Shown here: piece after piece, positions 501 to 7,285 of the stretch
Layout of the letters: each line of letters opens with the position of its first letter
How positions within the stretch are numbered: position 1 is the stretch's first letter
Origin: Bryobacteraceae bacterium
GTDB taxonomy: Bacteria > Acidobacteriota > Terriglobia > Bryobacterales > Bryobacteraceae
Length of the DNA: 64,000 bases
Direction: 5' to 3'
Assembly (NCBI GenBank): GCA_023384675.1
Contig: JAHDVK010000025.1
Coordinates: 1 to 64,000 of the forward strand
Program-made: the position numbers and the translations under genes
The notes under the pieces: model-generated
Told to the model about the DNA's origin: nothing
Database searches by the model: none
What the model saw: the letters and a program-made list of their open reading frames with translations, nothing else

Positions 501-1082
501 TCATTTTCGCGGCTGCGCAGTGCGCGGCGTGCGGCGACGGCTGCGCTCAGATGGCGCGGACCCTTCCGCGGCATTGTGTTCGGCTTGCGCGTCCAGCGGC
601 TTTGGCTGCTGCTTGGAGGTCAGCCGGAGCAGAGGCATTGGCGAAACGTGAAGTCCCATTCGGCCGGTCATAGATTGTACAAACTCCCGGAAAAATGGCC
701 AACAATTGAAGACAGCGTTGACATCTTTGAAGGCGTCCAATTCGGCTTGCGTTGGCTGATACCCTTCGTTCAAGCGGTAGGTCAGGCCAAAGCGACCCGA
801 GATTCGAACCACTGGGCCTTGCTCGGGAAGCCCGCCTGCCGGCTTGCCTTCGACACTGAGGCGGATCGCGAATCCGGCGCGGGAACCGGAAAGCGGCAAA
901 ACCTCAGGCGCAAGAGCAAGACTGAGGGAGAGAGGCTCGGGCGGCTCCGGAAACTGCTGCTCTACAGAGCACTGACTCTCCAGGAGCCGAATACTCTCGA
1001 TTTGAGCGTTCCGCTGAAACGCAGCGGAAGCCTTCACGGCTGCGCTGTCCTGGCTTAGCAAAAAGTCCACACGCGACTCCAT
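501..1082 (-). CDS. SecB-like chaperone of a toxin-antitoxin-chaperone (TAC) module
   Basis: 193 residues. The segment at about 118-144 (AFKDVNAVFNCWPFFREF followed by VQSMTGRMG) matches the conserved C-terminal helix region of SecB-like proteins, and the N-terminal half is compatible with the SecB beta-sheet fold. In known TAC systems such a dedicated SecB-like chaperone holds and folds the antitoxin so that it can neutralise the toxin. The gene is third in an operon, 8 bp after the stop of the MqsA-like antitoxin, matching the usual order toxin, antitoxin, chaperone. The last 30 or so residues are basic and low in complexity and may be disordered. Housekeeping SecB is less likely because of the operon context and the divergent ends. 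No other SecB is visible in the window. Confidence 0.72.
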   Translation of the reverse strand: MESRVDFLLSQDSAAVKASAAFQRNAQIESIRLLESQCSVEQQFPEPPEPLSLSLALAPEVLPLSGSRAGFAIRLSVEGKPAGGLPEQGPVVRISGRFGLTYRLNEGYQPTQAELDAFKDVNAVFNCWPFFREFVQSMTGRMGLHVSPMPLLRLTSKQQPKPLDAQAEHNAAEGSAPSERSRRRTPRTAQPRK

Positions 1083-1090
1083 AGATGAAC

Positions 1091-1627
1091 CTAGGCTGCA
1101 TACGAACAGTCAGGAGACCGGCCCGACGCCGGTCCACTCCCGGTCAACGGGCTAAAGCCAGCCCAATCAGATCGAGTCTCCGCTTGCACTGTGACGGGGA
1201 CAGGCCCAAGTCTGCTCTCAATCGGGAGGGCCGACTCCAATTCGCGCAGGTTCGTGCGAGCCGCTTCCACATCCGTGCAGAGGCGGATGAGGCGGTCGCT
1301 GGATTCGTCCTGGATTGCGCCGGCTTCCCATCGCTTGACACTGTTGACGCCGACGCCGAGGCGGCAGGCGAAGGCGCGTTGCGAAAGGCCCAACCGCTTG
1401 CGGGCGGCCTTGAACTCATCCGTGGTGAGAAGGCCGTGGGCGCGGCGGTACGCGTCGGCACTGGCGATGGAGTAGGCATCAGCCTGGGCGTCGGTCAAGA
1501 CGGTCTCGCCGCAGTGGTCGCAGACTTCAGCTTCGACCTGGACGCGAAACGACTCTCCACGCACATTGGCCTCAACGATGGCGGACTGGACCCGCATGGT
1601 ACCAATCCCGCAAACGAAGCATTTCAT
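1091..1627 (-). CDS. MqsA/HigA-type antitoxin with zinc ribbon, HTH and long C-terminal tail
   Basis: 178 residues from ATG at 1627, which overlaps the toxin stop codon as ATGA; upstream in-frame methionines would lie inside the toxin gene. The N-terminal zinc-binding part has paired CxxC motifs (Cys3/Cys6 and Cys36/Cys39). A Cro/CI-type helix-turn-helix follows at about 78-103 (LGLSQRAFACRLGV...VKRWEAG). This layout is that of MqsA-family antitoxins, which autorepress their operon. Residues 130-178 extend beyond the HTH and include an aromatic patch (SDWAGF). In TAC antitoxins such a tail acts as the chaperone-addiction region; assigning that role here is inference from the neighbouring SecB-like gene. 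Toxin binding would be expected through the zinc domain. Confidence 0.78.
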   Translation of the reverse strand: MKCFVCGIGTMRVQSAIVEANVRGESFRVQVEAEVCDHCGETVLTDAQADAYSIASADAYRRAHGLLTTDEFKAARKRLGLSQRAFACRLGVGVNSVKRWEAGAIQDESSDRLIRLCTDVEAARTNLRELESALPIESRLGPVPVTVQAETRSDWAGFSPLTGSGPASGRSPDCSYAA

Positions 1628-2094
1628 TTCTCTCTCCTCGGCAGAACAGGAGGATGACATGACCAGAACAGGACATGCGGCTTCTTCTCCTCCAGATGAA
1701 GCTGGAACTTCAGGTAGATCCCCGCCTTCAGTTCCAAGCTCTGAAAAAGGTATGGATAGCCCGGCGGCCTCTCGAGGTCGTGGGGCGGTTCGTAATCGAC
1801 CGGCTGGATTTCCGCCAATCGCCGGAGAACGAATGCGCGGCGTTCCAGCAGCGAGACATTGTAGTGATCCCGGATCTGGTCAACAAAATTGGAATGGTAG
1901 CGGGCGGTTCCGTCATTGACAGCCCTTTCGGCGATCTGGAGAGCTTCCTCGGGGTCGTGCCGGCCCAGATAGCCCTTGCTGATGACTTCTTCGTAGAACC
2001 TCTGCTCATACTTCCGGAAGTAGTTTTGTTTGTCTAACTCTTCCGCACGGGCCTTCCAGAGCGCCGGATATGGATTCTTGTTCGGGGCGCTCAT
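1624..2094 (-). CDS. Putative toxin of the TAC module, MqsR/HigB-like
   Basis: 156 residues from ATG at 2094, preceded by GGTGGG as ribosome binding site; a GTG at 2103 is an alternative. It is the first gene of the three-gene unit and overlaps the antitoxin start by four bases. The C-terminal strand pattern (GIYLKFQLHLEE...HVLFWSCH, about residues 125-147) resembles the final strands of MqsR-type mRNA interferases, where an YLK strand is followed by a hydrophobic strand. The N-terminal 100 residues are mostly helical and charged, and make the protein longer than MqsR (about 98 residues). Toxin identity therefore rests mainly on position and weak C-terminal resemblance. Expected activity, if correct, is ribosome-dependent or free mRNA cleavage. 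Confidence 0.55.
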   Translation of the reverse strand: MSAPNKNPYPALWKARAEELDKQNYFRKYEQRFYEEVISKGYLGRHDPEEALQIAERAVNDGTARYHSNFVDQIRDHYNVSLLERRAFVLRRLAEIQPVDYEPPHDLERPPGYPYLFQSLELKAGIYLKFQLHLEEKKPHVLFWSCHPPVLPRREK

Positions 2095-2128
2095 CGAACC
2101 CACCTATACGGTACCATATGGGCCCAAA

Positions 2129-2611
2129 CTAGGCAAGATCCTTGTCCGGGCGCTGGGCCGGAAGCGAGAGAAGTCTGGCGAGCAGGGCTTCTGCCTGGGT
2201 GCCGGCAACCTGGATGGGGCAAGCGGCGGGGGCGAGGATGGCGCGGGCGGCGTCGTCGTAGATGATGTTGGATTCGGGGTAGCCGCGGGCGGTTTTGGCG
2301 CGGATTTCGGTATCGAGGTCGTCGCGGGTGTCCGTGGCTTCCCAATAGCCACGGTTGATGGAGAAGTCGTCGCGGAGGGTGGCGTCGGGTTTCACGAAGG
2401 CGCCGGGGGCGAGTTTATAGGGGTGTTCGGGGATGAGTTGCCACTTGCGGCGGCGGGCGAGATCGGCGAGGAGGGTCTGGAAGGCGGAGCGGGTGGCGGA
2501 TTCGTGTTCCACGCCCGCTCCGCGAAATTCCCGCAGAGTCAGTTGGTATTTGTGCAGCAGTTTGTCCGCGGGCTGGATTTGGACTGGCACAGTTCCAACG
2601 AATTCTATCAT
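2129..2611 (-). pseudogene. N-terminal remnant of a large restriction-type enzyme (PD-(D/E)XK nuclease end)
   Basis: 160 codons from ATG at 2611. The sequence resembles the N-terminal nuclease domain of very large single-chain restriction/helicase/methylase proteins (type ISP-like): KLLHKYQLTLREFRGAG, then HESATRSAF, then KPDATLRD, then RGYWEATDT with DDLDTEI after it. Those proteins exceed 1000 residues, whereas this frame stops after about 160 and no helicase or methylase sequence follows. The expected E-x-K of the nuclease core reads E-A-T here (Glu91, Thr93), so the catalytic lysine appears lost. Both facts suggest a decayed fragment. A free-standing small protein derived from the domain cannot be excluded. 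It sits directly upstream of the TAC operon on the same strand. Confidence 0.55.
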
Positions 2612-2651
2612 CCCCGCCTTCGATTCCGGCCGAAATCCGATCTATGCGCAC

Positions 2652-3015
2652 GCGGCCCGAAGCGCAAAGCTCAGCCCAGTTCGCTCCACTCAGCCCGCTT
2701 GCGGGCCCGGTAGGCATGGTTGCAGAGCTGCGCGGCGCCGGCGGCGTAATGGCCGTCGAGCGCGTTCTCCAGGCTCGGCTTGTTGTCCACCACCGATTCC
2801 ACGAACCGCGCCACGTGCGTGGGGCCCCGCTGCACGCGGACCTCCTCTTCCGGCCGCCGCTGGGTCTCCGGCCTGCCCTCGAACGATTTCAAATACGCCC
2901 CGCGATGCCGCTTCGGGAAGTTCTCCGAGCCATACCGCTGGACCTCGGCGAACACCGGCTCCGAGAAGATGGTCAGCCGCCCGCCGTCAATTTGCATCGC
3001 GCCCTGATCCCCCAT
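2652..3015. repeat. Direct repeat, copy 1 (truncated dehydrogenase 3' end)
   Basis: 364 bp that match 3716-4079 at a constant offset of 1064 bp with about ten mismatches and no gaps, roughly 97% identity. The repeat corresponds to the last ~115 codons of the dehydrogenase at 3735-5015 plus about 19 bp beyond its stop. Weaker similarity continues about 20 bp to the left. The right boundary is sharp at the CCCCAT that ends both copies. The 700 bp between the copies carry hicBA. Confidence 0.95.
2671..3015 (-). pseudogene. Truncated duplicate of a Gfo/Idh/MocA oxidoreductase C-terminus
   Basis: In this stretch the reading frame encodes the same C-terminal 115 residues as the intact dehydrogenase at 3735-5015, from MGDQGAMQIDGG to RARKRAEWSELG, with few substitutions (for example S for P and G for E). 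No Rossmann domain or start region is present; the open frame continues upstream to 3090 only as unrelated sequence. It is therefore a gene fragment left by duplication, not a functional enzyme. The frame is still intact, so the duplication is probably recent or was corrected by gene conversion. Confidence 0.9.
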
Positions 3016-3179: not shown

Positions 3180-3401
3180 ATGCCGCGAAAGGCCAGCGTG
3201 GTCATCGAGAAGGACGTGCACGGCTACTACGCCTGGTGCCCGGAACTCAAAGGATGCCAATCCCAGGGCACAACCCTCGAAGAGACCCTCACCCACATCC
3301 GCGAAGCGATCGAACTCTACCTGGAAACCCTGCCGCCGGAGGAACGCGACCTGTTGTTGAGCCAGGAGATCCTCACGACTGCCGTCGAGGTGAATGCCTA
3401 A
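3180..3401 (+). CDS. hicB: HicB-family antitoxin
   Basis: 73 residues with the HicB fold signature: KASVVIEKDVHGYYAWCPEL, then GCQSQGTTLEETLTHIREAI, followed by the helix LYLETLPPEE. HicB proteins bind and inhibit the HicA mRNA interferase. This is the short form without a recognisable C-terminal DNA-binding domain. The order is antitoxin first, toxin second. The expected partner start codon (ATG at 3394) lies inside the last codons of this gene, so the pair is translationally coupled. The partner frame is shifted (see hicA). The pair sits exactly between two dehydrogenase-derived direct repeats, in an islet that also holds a TAC module. Confidence 0.88.
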   Translation: MPRKASVVIEKDVHGYYAWCPELKGCQSQGTTLEETLTHIREAIELYLETLPPEERDLLLSQEILTTAVEVNA

Positions 3402-3596: not shown

Positions 3597-3715
3597 ACCA
3601 TCTGGCCGCCAACGATAGCCCGCAGGCGCCTCCCCAACCCCCTCGCCCAATCCAACCAAGCGTAGGTGCCAACCAGGGAAAATGGTGTGATTTTCCAAAT
3701 CGACCCTATACGGAT

Positions 3716-4079
3716 GCGGCCCGAAGCGCAAACCTCAGCCCAGTTCGCTCCACTCGGCCCGCTTCCGGGCCCGGTACGCATGGTTGCAGAGCTGCGCGGC
3801 GCCGGCGGCGTAATGGCCGTCGAGCGCGTTCTCCAGGCTCGGCTTGTTGTCCACCACCGATTCCACGAACCGCGCCACGTGCGTGGGGCCCCGCTGCACG
3901 CGGACCTCCTCTTCCGGCCGCCGCTGGGTCTCCGGCCTGCCCTCGAACGATTTCAAATATGCCTCGCGATGCCGCTTCGGGAAGTTCTCCGAGCCATACC
4001 GCTGGACCTCGGCGAATACCGGCTCGGGGAAGATCGTCAGCCGCCCGCCGTCAATTTGCATCGCGCCCTGATCCCCCAT
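3716..4079. repeat. Direct repeat, copy 2 (3' end of the intact dehydrogenase gene)
   Basis: Partner of the repeat at 2652-3015 (offset 1064 bp, about ten mismatches). This copy is part of the intact gene 3735-5015 and is therefore the likely source. Recombination between the copies would delete hicBA and restore a single dehydrogenase end. Confidence 0.95.
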
Positions 4080-5015
4080 GATCCAGACGCCGCGCCCGCG
4101 GTTGCCCGAATTGCAGAGGTTCACGTAGAGATCCACGATGAAGCCCTCGGGGTATTCGAGCATCGAGTTCATCACGTCGGGCACGTCGCGGCCGTCGTTC
4201 CAGCGGAAGATGCCGCCCATCGAAACGGCCGCCGCCGGGTGCTTCACGTTCAGGATTTCGTGCAGCGTCGTGAACTGGTGGACGAACAGGTCCGTGGCCA
4301 CCCCTCCCGAAAACTCCCACCAGCAGCGCCAGCGGAAGAAGGTCTCGGCGCGGAAAGGCCGCGCCGGCCGCGCGCCGAGAAAGCGCTGCCAGTCCACGGT
4401 TTGCGGCGAGGCGTCGGGCGGCACCGGATAGATCCACGCGCCTTCGGCATTGTTGCGATGCTCGCTCAGCCGCACCATGTTCAGCTTGCCGAGCCGGCCC
4501 GAGGCCACCACCTCGCGCGCTTTCGCCGTCAGCGCCGACGTCTTGCCCTGGCTGCCGACCTGCAGCACCTGCTTCGGGCGCGCATTCGACGCGGCCACCA
4601 TGCGTTGGCCTTCAACGAAACTCCAGGAGATCGGTTTCTCGATGTACACATGCTTGCCGGCATCGAGCGCATCATGCACCATCCGTTCATGCAGATGGTC
4701 CGGCGTGGCGATACACACCGCCTGCACCTCTTTGTTGTCGAGCACCGCGCGGTAATCCTTGGTGGTCTGGATCGAGGAGCCAAGCTGCTCCTTCGCGCGT
4801 TCGAGGCAGCCGTCGTAAAGGTCGGCCACCGCGATGCCGCGCACGCCCGGCACTTCGGTGAACTCATCGATCAACTGCTTGCCGCGAATGCCGGAACCAA
4901 TGAAACCGACGGTGAGACCGCGGCCATTGATCGACTGTGCGGCGGCTTGCCCGGCGAGCGTGTACGTGACGGCGCCGGCGAGGAAAGATCGGCGGGAGGG
5001 AGACTTCATGTCCAT
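3735..5015 (-). CDS. Tat-exported Gfo/Idh/MocA-family oxidoreductase
   Basis: 426 residues, complete. It begins with a Tat signal (SPSRRSFLAGAV) and a likely cleavage region near AAAQS. The Rossmann fold follows (LTVGFIGSGIRGKQL, about 34-48), with VADLYD as the second-strand acidic end. EKPISWS near residue 123 carries the family's EKP lysine that contacts nicotinamide and substrate. The C-terminal half is the alpha/beta domain typical of exported family members in Acidobacteria and Planctomycetes. The start ATG at 5015 shares one base with the stop of the WaaA-LpxK gene upstream (TGATG); a second ATG at 5009 is possible. The 3' end is duplicated at 2652-3015. The substrate is unknown. Confidence 0.9.
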   Translation of the reverse strand: MDMKSPSRRSFLAGAVTYTLAGQAAAQSINGRGLTVGFIGSGIRGKQLIDEFTEVPGVRGIAVADLYDGCLERAKEQLGSSIQTTKDYRAVLDNKEVQAVCIATPDHLHERMVHDALDAGKHVYIEKPISWSFVEGQRMVAASNARPKQVLQVGSQGKTSALTAKAREVVASGRLGKLNMVRLSEHRNNAEGAWIYPVPPDASPQTVDWQRFLGARPARPFRAETFFRWRCWWEFSGGVATDLFVHQFTTLHEILNVKHPAAAVSMGGIFRWNDGRDVPDVMNSMLEYPEGFIVDLYVNLCNSGNRGRGVWIMGDQGAMQIDGGRLTIFPEPVFAEVQRYGSENFPKRHREAYLKSFEGRPETQRRPEEEVRVQRGPTHVARFVESVVDNKPSLENALDGHYAAGAAQLCNHAYRARKRAEWSELG

Positions 5016-7285
5016 CAGGATACAGCGGGCGAGGGCCAGGGGAAATCCTCAGGCCAGCCTTCCACCTCGAGTTCGAGCGGCACGGCGAGAACGTGCGAAG
5101 GCACGGAAGGCAGATTCAGCAGGTCCTTTTCCGTGGTGAGCAGGACATCGGCGCGCGCGCTGAGCGCTTTGATTTCGCCATCGGTGTATCGATGATGGTC
5201 CGGGAAGACCTCGAAGAACGCGAGCGAAACGCCGGCTTCTGCAAGCGATACGCGGAACGCTTCCGGCTGGCCCAGTCCGCAGAATGCACCCACGCGGCCT
5301 TCAGGCAGGCGGGGAACGGCGGCCTTCATCCGCGCGAACGCGATCGGTGCGCGCGGATTTTTACGGCGGATCTCCCGGATCAACGTGGGATATTGGCGCC
5401 CCTTTCGCGTGCGCGTCAGCACGATCAGGTCGGCGCGATCGAGCGCCGCAAACGGCTCGCGCAACTGTCCGCGCGGAAACACGCCGCCGCGCAAGGGGTC
5501 GAGCGCGTCGATCAATACGATGTCGAACTCGCGGCGCATCCGCCAGTGCTGGAAGCCGTCGTCGAGCAGGATCACATCGGGCCGCCGCCGCGCGGCGATC
5601 AAGGGGAAAGCCTCGAGGCGGCGCGCCGCCACGCCCACCGCCGCATCGCCCGCGCGCAGAATCAGTTGCGCCTCTTCGCCGGTTTCATCGACCGCCGCCG
5701 CATCGCCCGGCAGCAGCGCCACCGGCCGTTGCCCGCGCCGCCCATAACCGCGCATCAGGACAGCAGGAAATAAACCGCGCCGCGCCGCCTCGCGCGCGAG
5801 CCAGATCACCAGCGGGGTCTTGCCCGTGCCGCCCATCGCCAAATTGCCTACGGAAATCACGGGAACCGGGGCAAACTCGAGCCGGAAACTCTTCCAGGCG
5901 CGATCCGCCGCCACGCCCGCGCTCCAGAGCCAGGCGAGCGGCGCCAGCCAGCGGCGGCGCGGTTGCAGGAGGGCTTCGTCGTACAGGCGGACGATGGCGG
6001 CGGCGGCGCGGGCGGTGGCGCCTCGGCGCGCGGCGGCGCATTCCAGCGCCCGCTCGCCCAGCGCGCGGCGCGCGTCGGAATCGCGCAAAAGTGCGTCAAA
6101 AACGTGCTCCAGAGCCTCTTTTTGCGCGATTTTGAGGGCGTTTTTCGCCACGAAATCGTCCGCGATCGACTGGAAGTTCTGGTTGTTTGGCCCCGTGACG
6201 ATCGCGCGCCCGAACGCCGCCGGCTCCAGCACGTTATGCCCCCCGCGCGCGGCGATGGAACCGCCCACAAACACCACATCCGCCACTGAAAACAAGGCAC
6301 TTAACTCGCCAATCGTGTCCAGCAGCAGAACGCCCGGCTTCGCCAGCGGCCCCAGCGCGGAACGCCGCACGAAAGCTACACCGGCCTCGGCCAGCAGCCT
6401 CGCCGCGGAATCGAAGCGCTCGGGGCGGCGCGGAGCCAGAATCAGGAGCAGTCCCGGATGTTGGGCCGCAAGCCCGCGAAAGACCTCCACGACCAGTTCG
6501 TCCTCGTCCACGTCGCCGGGGAAGGCGGGCGGCATGGTGGAAGCGGCGATCACGATGGGCGAAGCCGCATGGTTCGTCAAAAACTCCCGCAAATCCTCGG
6601 CGATCCGCGCCGAGGTGGGATCAAAGTCGAACTTGAGATTGCCGCCGTCGCGAGCGTGCGCGGCGCCGAGCGTGCGATAGCGGGCCTCGGCGATCGCATC
6701 CTGCGCGAGCAGTTCATGCGGCAGCGCGAGCGGAGCGCGGAAGAACCAGGCGTAGCGCCGGTAGCGGGGCAGGGCCTTATCCGAGATGCGGCCGTTGACC
6801 ACCGCCAGGCGCGCGCCCGTGCGCACCGCTTCCCGCCACAAGTTGGGCCAGATTTCGGTCTCCATCACGGCGACCACCGAGGGTTTCAGAAGCCGCAAAA
6901 CGCGCCGGACGGCAAAGCAATAGTCCAGCGGCGCATAGAAGACGCCGTCGGCGAGGCCCGCGAGCTTTTGCTCGGCCATGGCGCGTCCGGCGATGGTGGA
7001 AACCGAGACAAACAGGGGCGCTTCGGGCAGTTGCGCACGCAACTGCCGCAGCAAGCCGACGGCGCTCATCGCTTCGCCGACGCTCACGGCATGGAGCCAC
7101 ACCGCACCGGGCGAGGAGCGGCGGAAGCGGCGCGGCAGTAATCCGAATCGTTCGCCGAGGTGGCGCAGGTAGCGCCGGTCCCGCAACACCCTCACTGCGA
7201 GATAGACGAGCAAAAAAGGGAACCCGGCCCACTGCAAGGCGCGGTAGAGCGCGAAAGCCAGGCGGTGTGACAGCGGTTGCGGCAA
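5015..7285 (-). CDS. waaA-lpxK: Fused Kdo transferase (WaaA/KdtA) and lipid A 4'-kinase (LpxK)
   Basis: 756 residues join two consecutive lipid A/core enzymes. Residues 1 to about 430 are WaaA: an N-terminal membrane helix (FPFLLVYLAV), HAVSVGEAMSA with the presumed catalytic Glu71, PNLW, and the donor-binding GGHNVLEPAAFGRAIVTGPN near 345. Residues about 440-756 are LpxK: ISVGNLAMGGTGKTPL (Walker A, about 475-490), LLDDGFQHWRM, and FPDHHRYTDGE near 697. LpxK phosphorylates the disaccharide to lipid IVA and WaaA then adds Kdo, both at the inner face of the inner membrane, so the fusion couples successive steps in reverse order. The start is TTG with only a weak GAAG upstream. The two enzymes are separate proteins in most bacteria. 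Confidence 0.93.
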   Translation of the reverse strand: MPQPLSHRLAFALYRALQWAGFPFLLVYLAVRVLRDRRYLRHLGERFGLLPRRFRRSSPGAVWLHAVSVGEAMSAVGLLRQLRAQLPEAPLFVSVSTIAGRAMAEQKLAGLADGVFYAPLDYCFAVRRVLRLLKPSVVAVMETEIWPNLWREAVRTGARLAVVNGRISDKALPRYRRYAWFFRAPLALPHELLAQDAIAEARYRTLGAAHARDGGNLKFDFDPTSARIAEDLREFLTNHAASPIVIAASTMPPAFPGDVDEDELVVEVFRGLAAQHPGLLLILAPRRPERFDSAARLLAEAGVAFVRRSALGPLAKPGVLLLDTIGELSALFSVADVVFVGGSIAARGGHNVLEPAAFGRAIVTGPNNQNFQSIADDFVAKNALKIAQKEALEHVFDALLRDSDARRALGERALECAAARRGATARAAAAIVRLYDEALLQPRRRWLAPLAWLWSAGVAADRAWKSFRLEFAPVPVISVGNLAMGGTGKTPLVIWLAREAARRGLFPAVLMRGYGRRGQRPVALLPGDAAAVDETGEEAQLILRAGDAAVGVAARRLEAFPLIAARRRPDVILLDDGFQHWRMRREFDIVLIDALDPLRGGVFPRGQLREPFAALDRADLIVLTRTRKGRQYPTLIREIRRKNPRAPIAFARMKAAVPRLPEGRVGAFCGLGQPEAFRVSLAEAGVSLAFFEVFPDHHRYTDGEIKALSARADVLLTTEKDLLNLPSVPSHVLAVPLELEVEGWPEDFPWPSPAVS

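What the first reader, a model, noticed from the sequence alone, without database searches (positions are those of the whole stretch)
501..2094. Toxin-antitoxin-chaperone module with a SecB-like chaperone
Three minus-strand genes with ATGA overlap and 8-bp spacing: a weakly MqsR-like toxin candidate, an antitoxin with CxxC pairs and HTH, and a SecB-like chaperone. The order toxin-antitoxin-chaperone is that of known TAC systems (HigBA-SecB and MqsRA-SecB types in mycobacteria and others). The toxin is longer than the known family members and differs at its N-terminal 100 residues, so it may be a new toxin type.
Basis: partly seen in the sequence, partly recalled or inferred. Interest (0 to 1): 0.6.

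Follow-up and report, generated by a model that had tools for sequence, protein, structure and literature searches.

The report
Chaperone-guarded toxin-antitoxin operon, new toxin family
A soil Acidobacteriota bacterium carries a three-gene switch (a toxin, its antitoxin, and a chaperone that keeps the antitoxin alive) whose layout is known, but whose toxin belongs to a previously unnamed, distant branch of the MqsR RNA-cutting toxins.

Summary
2094-1624, 1627-1091 and 1082-501 on the minus strand form a toxin-antitoxin-chaperone (TAC) operon with an ATGA overlap and an 8-bp gap. The chaperone is a TAC-type SecB: E 1.7e-11 to M. tuberculosis Rv1957, and its predicted structure matches that protein with Z 15.0. 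The antitoxin is MqsA family (TIGR03830, 3e-28). Its 44-residue aromatic tail ends in Tyr-Ala-Ala and looks like a chaperone-addiction region plus ClpX degron. The toxin matches no Pfam, NCBIfam or PADLOC model, but it is a real family, found almost only in Bryobacterales and always followed by an MqsA-type antitoxin. Its predicted fold is closest to MqsR (Z 7.3; next best 4.6). Profiles link it to MqsR-type toxins paired with MqsA-Panacea antitoxins (E 1.7e-5). It has an extra 46-residue N-terminus, an invariant His where MqsR has Lys96, and no counterpart of catalytic Lys56. Long aromatic antitoxin tails occur where a SecB follows (11 of 12 loci) and rarely otherwise (1 of 9); a conserved palindrome (21 of 22 loci) lies in the promoter. 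Most likely it is an autoregulated TAC with a divergent MqsR-like RNase: a new variant of a known kind; toxicity is untested.

The parts
1624..2094 (-). toxin gene, 156 aa: N-terminal helical extension (residues 1-46) plus MqsR-like/RelE-type core (47-151); Y127, K129 and H147 proposed at the active site
   Evidence: AlphaFold2 pLDDT 83; best structural match MqsR 3hi2 Z 7.3, rmsd 2.4 A, 82 residues; relatives; invariant K129 and H147
1091..1627 (-). antitoxin gene, 178 aa: N-terminal CxxC/CxxC zinc finger, XRE-type HTH, C-terminal tail
   Evidence: PF15731 2.1e-14, TIGR03830 3e-28, both over cut-off; ATGA overlap with the toxin
1091..1225 (-). putative chaperone-addiction tail (44 residues, contains W, F, Y) ending in Ser-Tyr-Ala-Ala, a putative ClpX degron (stop codon included)
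   Evidence: tail length and aromatic content track presence of the SecB gene; model from PMC5105189 and PMC8165232
501..1082 (-). SecB-like TAC chaperone gene, 193 aa
   Evidence: profile E 1.7e-11 to Rv1957; AlphaFold2 model Z 15.0 to 5mtw and Z 12.1 to E. coli SecB
2110..2125 (-). putative operator, imperfect palindrome GGGCCCATATGGTACC (family consensus GGTATCAWATGATACC)
   Evidence: present upstream of the toxin in 21 of 22 loci at 12 or more of 16 matches; unique exact copy in the genome
2108..2136 (-). likely promoter: TTGCCT (2136-2131), 17 nt, TACCGT (2113-2108), with the palindrome lying in the spacer and -10
   Evidence: read by eye from the sequence and from the same arrangement in relatives; not found by the stricter consensus scan

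Best explanation
This is a toxin-antitoxin-chaperone operon. The toxin is most likely a divergent MqsR-like (BECR/RelE-fold) RNase that stops translation. The MqsA-like antitoxin binds it through the zinc-finger domain and represses the operon by binding the promoter palindrome through its HTH domain. The antitoxin's aromatic C-terminal tail cannot fold alone; the SecB-like chaperone holds it and hides a ClpX-type Tyr-Ala-Ala degron. When the chaperone is drawn away (stress-unfolded proteins, or a phage structural protein as in the HigBAC and CmdTAC systems), the antitoxin is degraded and the toxin is released. Shown here by computation: gene identities, folds, synteny, conserved operator, and the tail-chaperone association. 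Inferred: RNase activity, neutralisation, addiction, trigger.
For: Chaperone: phmmer 8e-10 and profile 1.7e-11 to Rv1957; model Z 15.0. Antitoxin: PF15731 and TIGR03830 over cut-off. Toxin: all syntenic relatives examined are followed by MqsA-type antitoxins; fold nearest MqsR, with RelE-superfamily toxins filling nearly all lower ranks; profile link to PanA-associated MqsR-type toxins E 1.7e-5 over the full length, and those to MqsR 2.5e-4. Tail: in the first set 9 of 9 SecB-plus tails were long and aromatic against 0 of 8 SecB-minus tails; with four later loci 11 of 12 against 1 of 9, Fisher p 0.0004. In L073 the tail is cut by a frameshift and SecB is gone. Operator in 21 of 22 loci. About half of the long-toxin loci have a broken toxin (5 of 11: L053, L056-L059) beside an open antitoxin, as expected of a harmful gene. 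Chaperone relatives in other Acidobacteriota also end TA operons of HigBA or HicAB-like type.
Against: No direct sequence match of the toxin to MqsR; the direct profile-profile score is weak (E 0.006). Fold Z 7.3 is below the level at which common arrangements are ruled out. MqsR's catalytic Lys56 is not conserved. Two of four later loci broke the tail rule (L130: SecB without a long tail; L132: long tail without SecB, though a DUF3467 gene follows). Related loci are not statistically independent, and MAG frameshifts may be assembly errors.
Confidence: 0.82

Rival explanations
1. A TAC as above, but the toxin does not act as an RNase (for example, a RelE-fold protein that lost catalysis and binds gyrase or another target, as ParE does).
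For: MqsR's catalytic Lys56 is not conserved and Lys96 is replaced by His (residues from PMC9636575); an extra N-terminal helical part is present; ParE shares the fold without RNase activity (PMC11980606).
Against: Tyr at the MqsR Tyr81 position is largely kept, and Lys129 and His147 are invariant over most of the family; His near the end of the last strand is used by YafQ, YoeB and HigB type RNases (established knowledge).
Confidence: 0.13
2. The operon is a decaying remnant: the toxin is inactive and only the antitoxin-chaperone pair, or nothing, is functional.
For: Five of 11 long-toxin loci are broken; the adjacent window genes include a truncated restriction gene and a truncated oxidoreductase copy.
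Against: In the window all three frames, the overlap, the promoter-like sequence and the conserved residues are intact.
Confidence: 0.1
3. The 1082-501 protein is a general export SecB that happens to lie beside a TA pair.
For: The genome has no other SecB by PF02556; some TAC chaperones can replace SecB in E. coli (PMC5105189).
Against: Closest by far to Rv1957 (Z 15.0 against 12.1 for SecB); PF02556 does not detect it; relatives sit in TA operons wherever examined.
Confidence: 0.03

Closest known systems
Mycobacterium tuberculosis TAC, HigB1-HigA1-SecB(TA) (Rv1955-1957)
   Same: gene order toxin-antitoxin-chaperone; chaperone homologous over most of its length; antitoxin C-terminal tail with Trp and Tyr and a hydrophobic ending (Val-Ala there, Ala-Ala here)
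   Different: toxin and antitoxin are HigB/HigA there, MqsR-like/MqsA here; tail sequences are not alike
Vibrio cholerae RC385 MqsRA-SecB TAC (PMC5105189)
   Same: same antitoxin family, MqsR-group toxin, SecB-like chaperone; shown to be a working TAC
   Different: its toxin is assigned to MqsR; the window toxin is not recognised by PF15723, is longer, and has a different active-site set (the two sequences were not compared here)
PanA-associated MqsR-type toxins (MqsR D2 of NetFlax, PMC10440598)
   Same: closest sequence relatives found among described TA toxins (profile E 1.7e-5, on plasmid-borne representatives of that architecture); shared Y-x-K and S-x-H; partner is MqsA zinc finger-HTH
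   Different: there a Panacea domain is fused to MqsA; here a SecB chaperone and a C-terminal tail take that place
E. coli MqsR (PF15723)
   Same: nearest fold in the PDB (Z 7.3); Tyr81 equivalent; MqsA partner
   Different: no significant direct sequence match; Lys56 not kept; Lys96 replaced by invariant His; 46-residue extension
CmdTAC
   Same: TAC plan with SecB-like chaperone, anti-phage role
   Different: CmdT is an ADP-ribosyltransferase and CmdA is described as two N-terminal helices with an unstructured tail (PMC11618068); here the toxin model is RelE-fold and the antitoxin MqsA-type

Membership tests
TAC (toxin-antitoxin-chaperone) systems | three adjacent co-directional genes: toxin, antitoxin, SecB-like chaperone | tested here: met
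   same block in relatives
TAC (toxin-antitoxin-chaperone) systems | chaperone homologous to SecB | tested here: met
   E 1.7e-11 to Rv1957, Z 15.0
TAC (toxin-antitoxin-chaperone) systems | antitoxin of HigA, MqsA or HicB type with a C-terminal extension (ChAD) | tested here: met
   MqsA by curated cut-off; 44-residue extension of a kind that tracks SecB presence
TAC (toxin-antitoxin-chaperone) systems | neutralisation of the toxin requires the chaperone | not testable with these tools
   needs expression experiments
MqsA antitoxin family | two CxxC pairs plus HTH; match over PF15731 and TIGR03830 cut-offs | tested here: met
   54.2 bits vs 30; 98.1 vs 61.8
MqsR toxin family (PF15723) | match to the family model | tested here: not met
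   no hit for the window toxin or nine relatives; not found in the own genome
MqsR toxin family (PF15723) | RelE-like fold nearest MqsR | tested here: met
   Z 7.3, 82 of 91 residues, next 4.6; Z under 8 calls for caution
MqsR toxin family (PF15723) | catalytic Tyr81 and Lys56 | tested here: not met
   Tyr81 aligns with Tyr127 (mostly conserved); no conserved Lys at position 56 (residues from PMC9636575)
SecB export chaperone (PF02556) | match to PF02556 | tested here: not met
   no hit, although the fold is shared (Z 12.1)
DUF4258 toxins (PF14076), some paired with MqsA | match to the model or clear profile link | tested here: inconclusive
   no hmmscan hit; profile-profile E 0.0007-0.002 over part of the length only

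The most novel reading that the evidence does not exclude
The toxin founds a separate RelE-fold toxin family, with a Tyr/Lys/His active site and its own N-terminal part, in which one toxin-MqsA core is fitted with interchangeable sensor modules: a SecB chaperone with an addiction tail (window), a DUF3467 protein with a long tail (L132), a Panacea domain (L088), or none (L061-L063, L065).
Probability: 0.35. Interest if true: 0.6.

Novelty: new variant of a known kind. Interest (0 to 1): 0.45.

Why it matters
TAC systems sense phage or stress through competition for a SecB-like chaperone. Here closely related toxin-antitoxin pairs exist with and without the chaperone, and the antitoxin tail mostly comes and goes with it. 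That gives natural pairs to test how chaperone addiction is gained and lost. The toxin family adds an unannotated branch next to the PanA-linked MqsR toxins, and the DUF3467 gene in the chaperone slot of one locus is a testable candidate for a second kind of TAC chaperone.

Tried and rejected
Single-sequence scans with the toxin in viral contigs, plasmids, phages and 84,980 genomes found nothing; relatives appeared only in a dense search of the same order and with an alignment. An alignment of long and short toxins together was too diverse for the collection scan. MqsR appeared at E 0.67 in the PDB sequence search with one alignment and vanished with a larger one, so I do not use it. Direct BLASTP and HMM comparison of the family with Bryobacterales MqsR gave no significance. 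An ADP-ribosyltransferase (CmdT-like) toxin was considered: none appeared among the fold matches, which were RelE-type, but absence from such a list excludes nothing. DUF4258 was considered because it also pairs with MqsA (PMC11980606); the profile link was partial and weaker than that to the PanA-linked MqsR toxins.

Full report
The observation. The window is contig 54 of a 5.7 Mb, 97% complete genome. Relatives found in the named collection are mostly Bryobacterales/Solibacter MAGs, which fits the host, though the genome itself is unnamed. On the minus strand, 2094-1624, 1627-1091 and 1082-501 are three intact genes; the toxin's stop and the antitoxin's start share ATGA, and 8 bp separate antitoxin and chaperone.

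Chaperone. Pfam SecB does not detect it, but phmmer finds the M. tuberculosis TAC chaperone Rv1957 at 8e-10, and a five-sequence profile at 1.7e-11. The AlphaFold2 model (mean pLDDT 78; residues 159-191 low confidence) matches Rv1957 with Z 15.0, rmsd 1.9 A over 133 residues, and E. coli SecB with Z 12.1. In nine other genomes of the same phylum, relatives of this chaperone follow HigBA- or HicAB-like TA genes or similar antitoxin genes.

Antitoxin. It passes the curated cut-offs of PF15731 and TIGR03830: zinc finger, then XRE-type HTH, then a tail.

Toxin. It matches nothing in Pfam, NCBIfam, PADLOC or PDB sequences. Searching 257 genomes of the same order gave two groups of relatives: long toxins like the window's (about 140-158 aa) and short ones (about 114-125 aa) that lack the N-terminal extension. 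They are one family (hhalign probability 99.6, E 2.9e-24). In every locus examined an MqsA-type antitoxin follows. In 84,980 species the long form turned up in ten MAGs, nine labelled Acidobacteriota/Bryobacterales and one Opitutia on a 4.4-kb contig that may be misbinned. Outside the order, 396 genomes of the phylum gave one further member.

The AlphaFold2 model of the toxin (13 sequences, mean pLDDT 83, pTM 0.75) has two N-terminal helices, then helices and three long strands. Its best structural match is E. coli MqsR (Foldseek rank 1; Z 7.3, rmsd 2.4 A, 82 of 91 residues, model 47-145); the next match, YafQ, has Z 4.6, and the ranks below are nearly all RelE-superfamily toxins. Z under 8 alone would not be decisive. 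Direct profile comparison with true MqsR from related genomes is weak (E 0.002-0.006). A bridge exists: four plasmid-borne toxins that stand before MqsA-Panacea-like antitoxins match the window family at E 1.7e-5 over the full length, match MqsR at 2.5e-4, and each has MqsR as its top Pfam hit below cut-off. Such MqsR:PanA pairs are experimentally described (PMC10440598). Across 14 family members Pro111, Ser119, Lys129 and His147 are invariant; among four later loci one lacks the Lys (L129). Tyr127 sits where MqsR has catalytic Tyr81; His147 sits where MqsR has Lys96; catalytic Lys56 is not conserved (residues from PMC9636575). This mapping comes from sequence alignment around the strands, not from a residue-level structural alignment, which I could not obtain.

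Regulation. A palindrome, GGTATCAWATGATACC, lies just upstream of the toxin in 21 of 22 loci with at least 12 of 16 matches; 120-nt control windows from the same loci average 8-9. Four of these loci were not used to define it. In the window it reads GGGCCCATATGGTACC (2125-2110) and falls between a TTGCCT -35 and TACCGT -10. Autorepression by the HTH antitoxin is the natural reading (inference).

Chaperone addiction. In published TACs the antitoxin's C-terminal extension recruits the chaperone (PMC5105189, PMC6377645), and HigA1 ends in a Val-Ala ClpX degron (PMC8165232). In the first 17 usable loci, tails (measured from the end of the HTH motif) were 62-99 residues where an intact SecB follows and 21-55 where it does not (no overlap; Mann-Whitney p 8e-5), and aromatic residues in the last part of the tail were found only in the SecB-plus group. 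Four later loci gave two agreements and two exceptions; together 11 of 12 against 1 of 9 (p 0.0004). The loci are related, so these p-values overstate the evidence. In L073 the antitoxin tail is cut off by a frameshift, with its remnant readable in another frame, and no SecB is left. Most SecB-plus antitoxins end in Ala-Ala, Val-Ala or a similar ending; the window's ends in Ser-Tyr-Ala-Ala.

Mechanism and its status. Shown computationally: identities, folds, synteny, operator, and the tail-chaperone association. Inferred: toxicity, RNA cleavage, neutralisation, addiction, and release by stress or phage proteins (as reported for HigBAC and CmdTAC: PMC11980606, PMC11618068).

Verdict. It is a TAC with MqsA-type antitoxin, a combination already known; what is new is a toxin family without a model in current libraries, at the edge of the MqsR group, with a chaperone module that is present in some relatives and absent or replaced in others.

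Noticed in passing
L132 (G604:C4:309500-314200), 2631-2296 minus: A DUF3467 gene (PF11950, 8.5e-15) follows a related toxin-MqsA pair 11 nt downstream, in the slot where SecB usually sits; that antitoxin has a long aromatic tail. DUF3467 may be an alternative TAC chaperone.
   Followed up: partly
L088 (G074:C59), 2278-1019 minus: A related toxin is paired with an antitoxin in which MqsA is fused to a Panacea/SocA domain (PF13274, 2.3e-10), with no SecB found on the short stretch held.
   Followed up: partly
L073, 763-1658: Long toxin and MqsA antitoxin without SecB; the antitoxin tail is frameshifted away, leaving its remnant in another frame. The record is labelled Opitutia but may be misbinned.
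   Followed up: partly
window 2129-2611 minus: N-terminal remnant of a type IIG-like restriction-methyltransferase (PADLOC PDLC03621, 1.5e-15) directly upstream of the TAC, suggesting a decayed defence island.
   Followed up: no
window 2633-2932 and 3697-3996: A 300-nt direct repeat (96%) of the 3' end of a Gfo/Idh/MocA oxidoreductase gene flanks a stretch with a HicB-like antitoxin gene (3180-3401), as if a HicAB-type cassette came in with a partial gene duplication.
   Followed up: partly
window 5015-7285 minus: One ORF of 756 aa fuses a Kdo transferase (Glycos_transf_N) with LpxK.
   Followed up: no
L053, L056, L057, L058, L059: In five long-toxin loci the toxin is broken by a stop, frameshift or truncation while the antitoxin stays open; this could be inactivation of a harmful gene or MAG assembly error.
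   Followed up: partly
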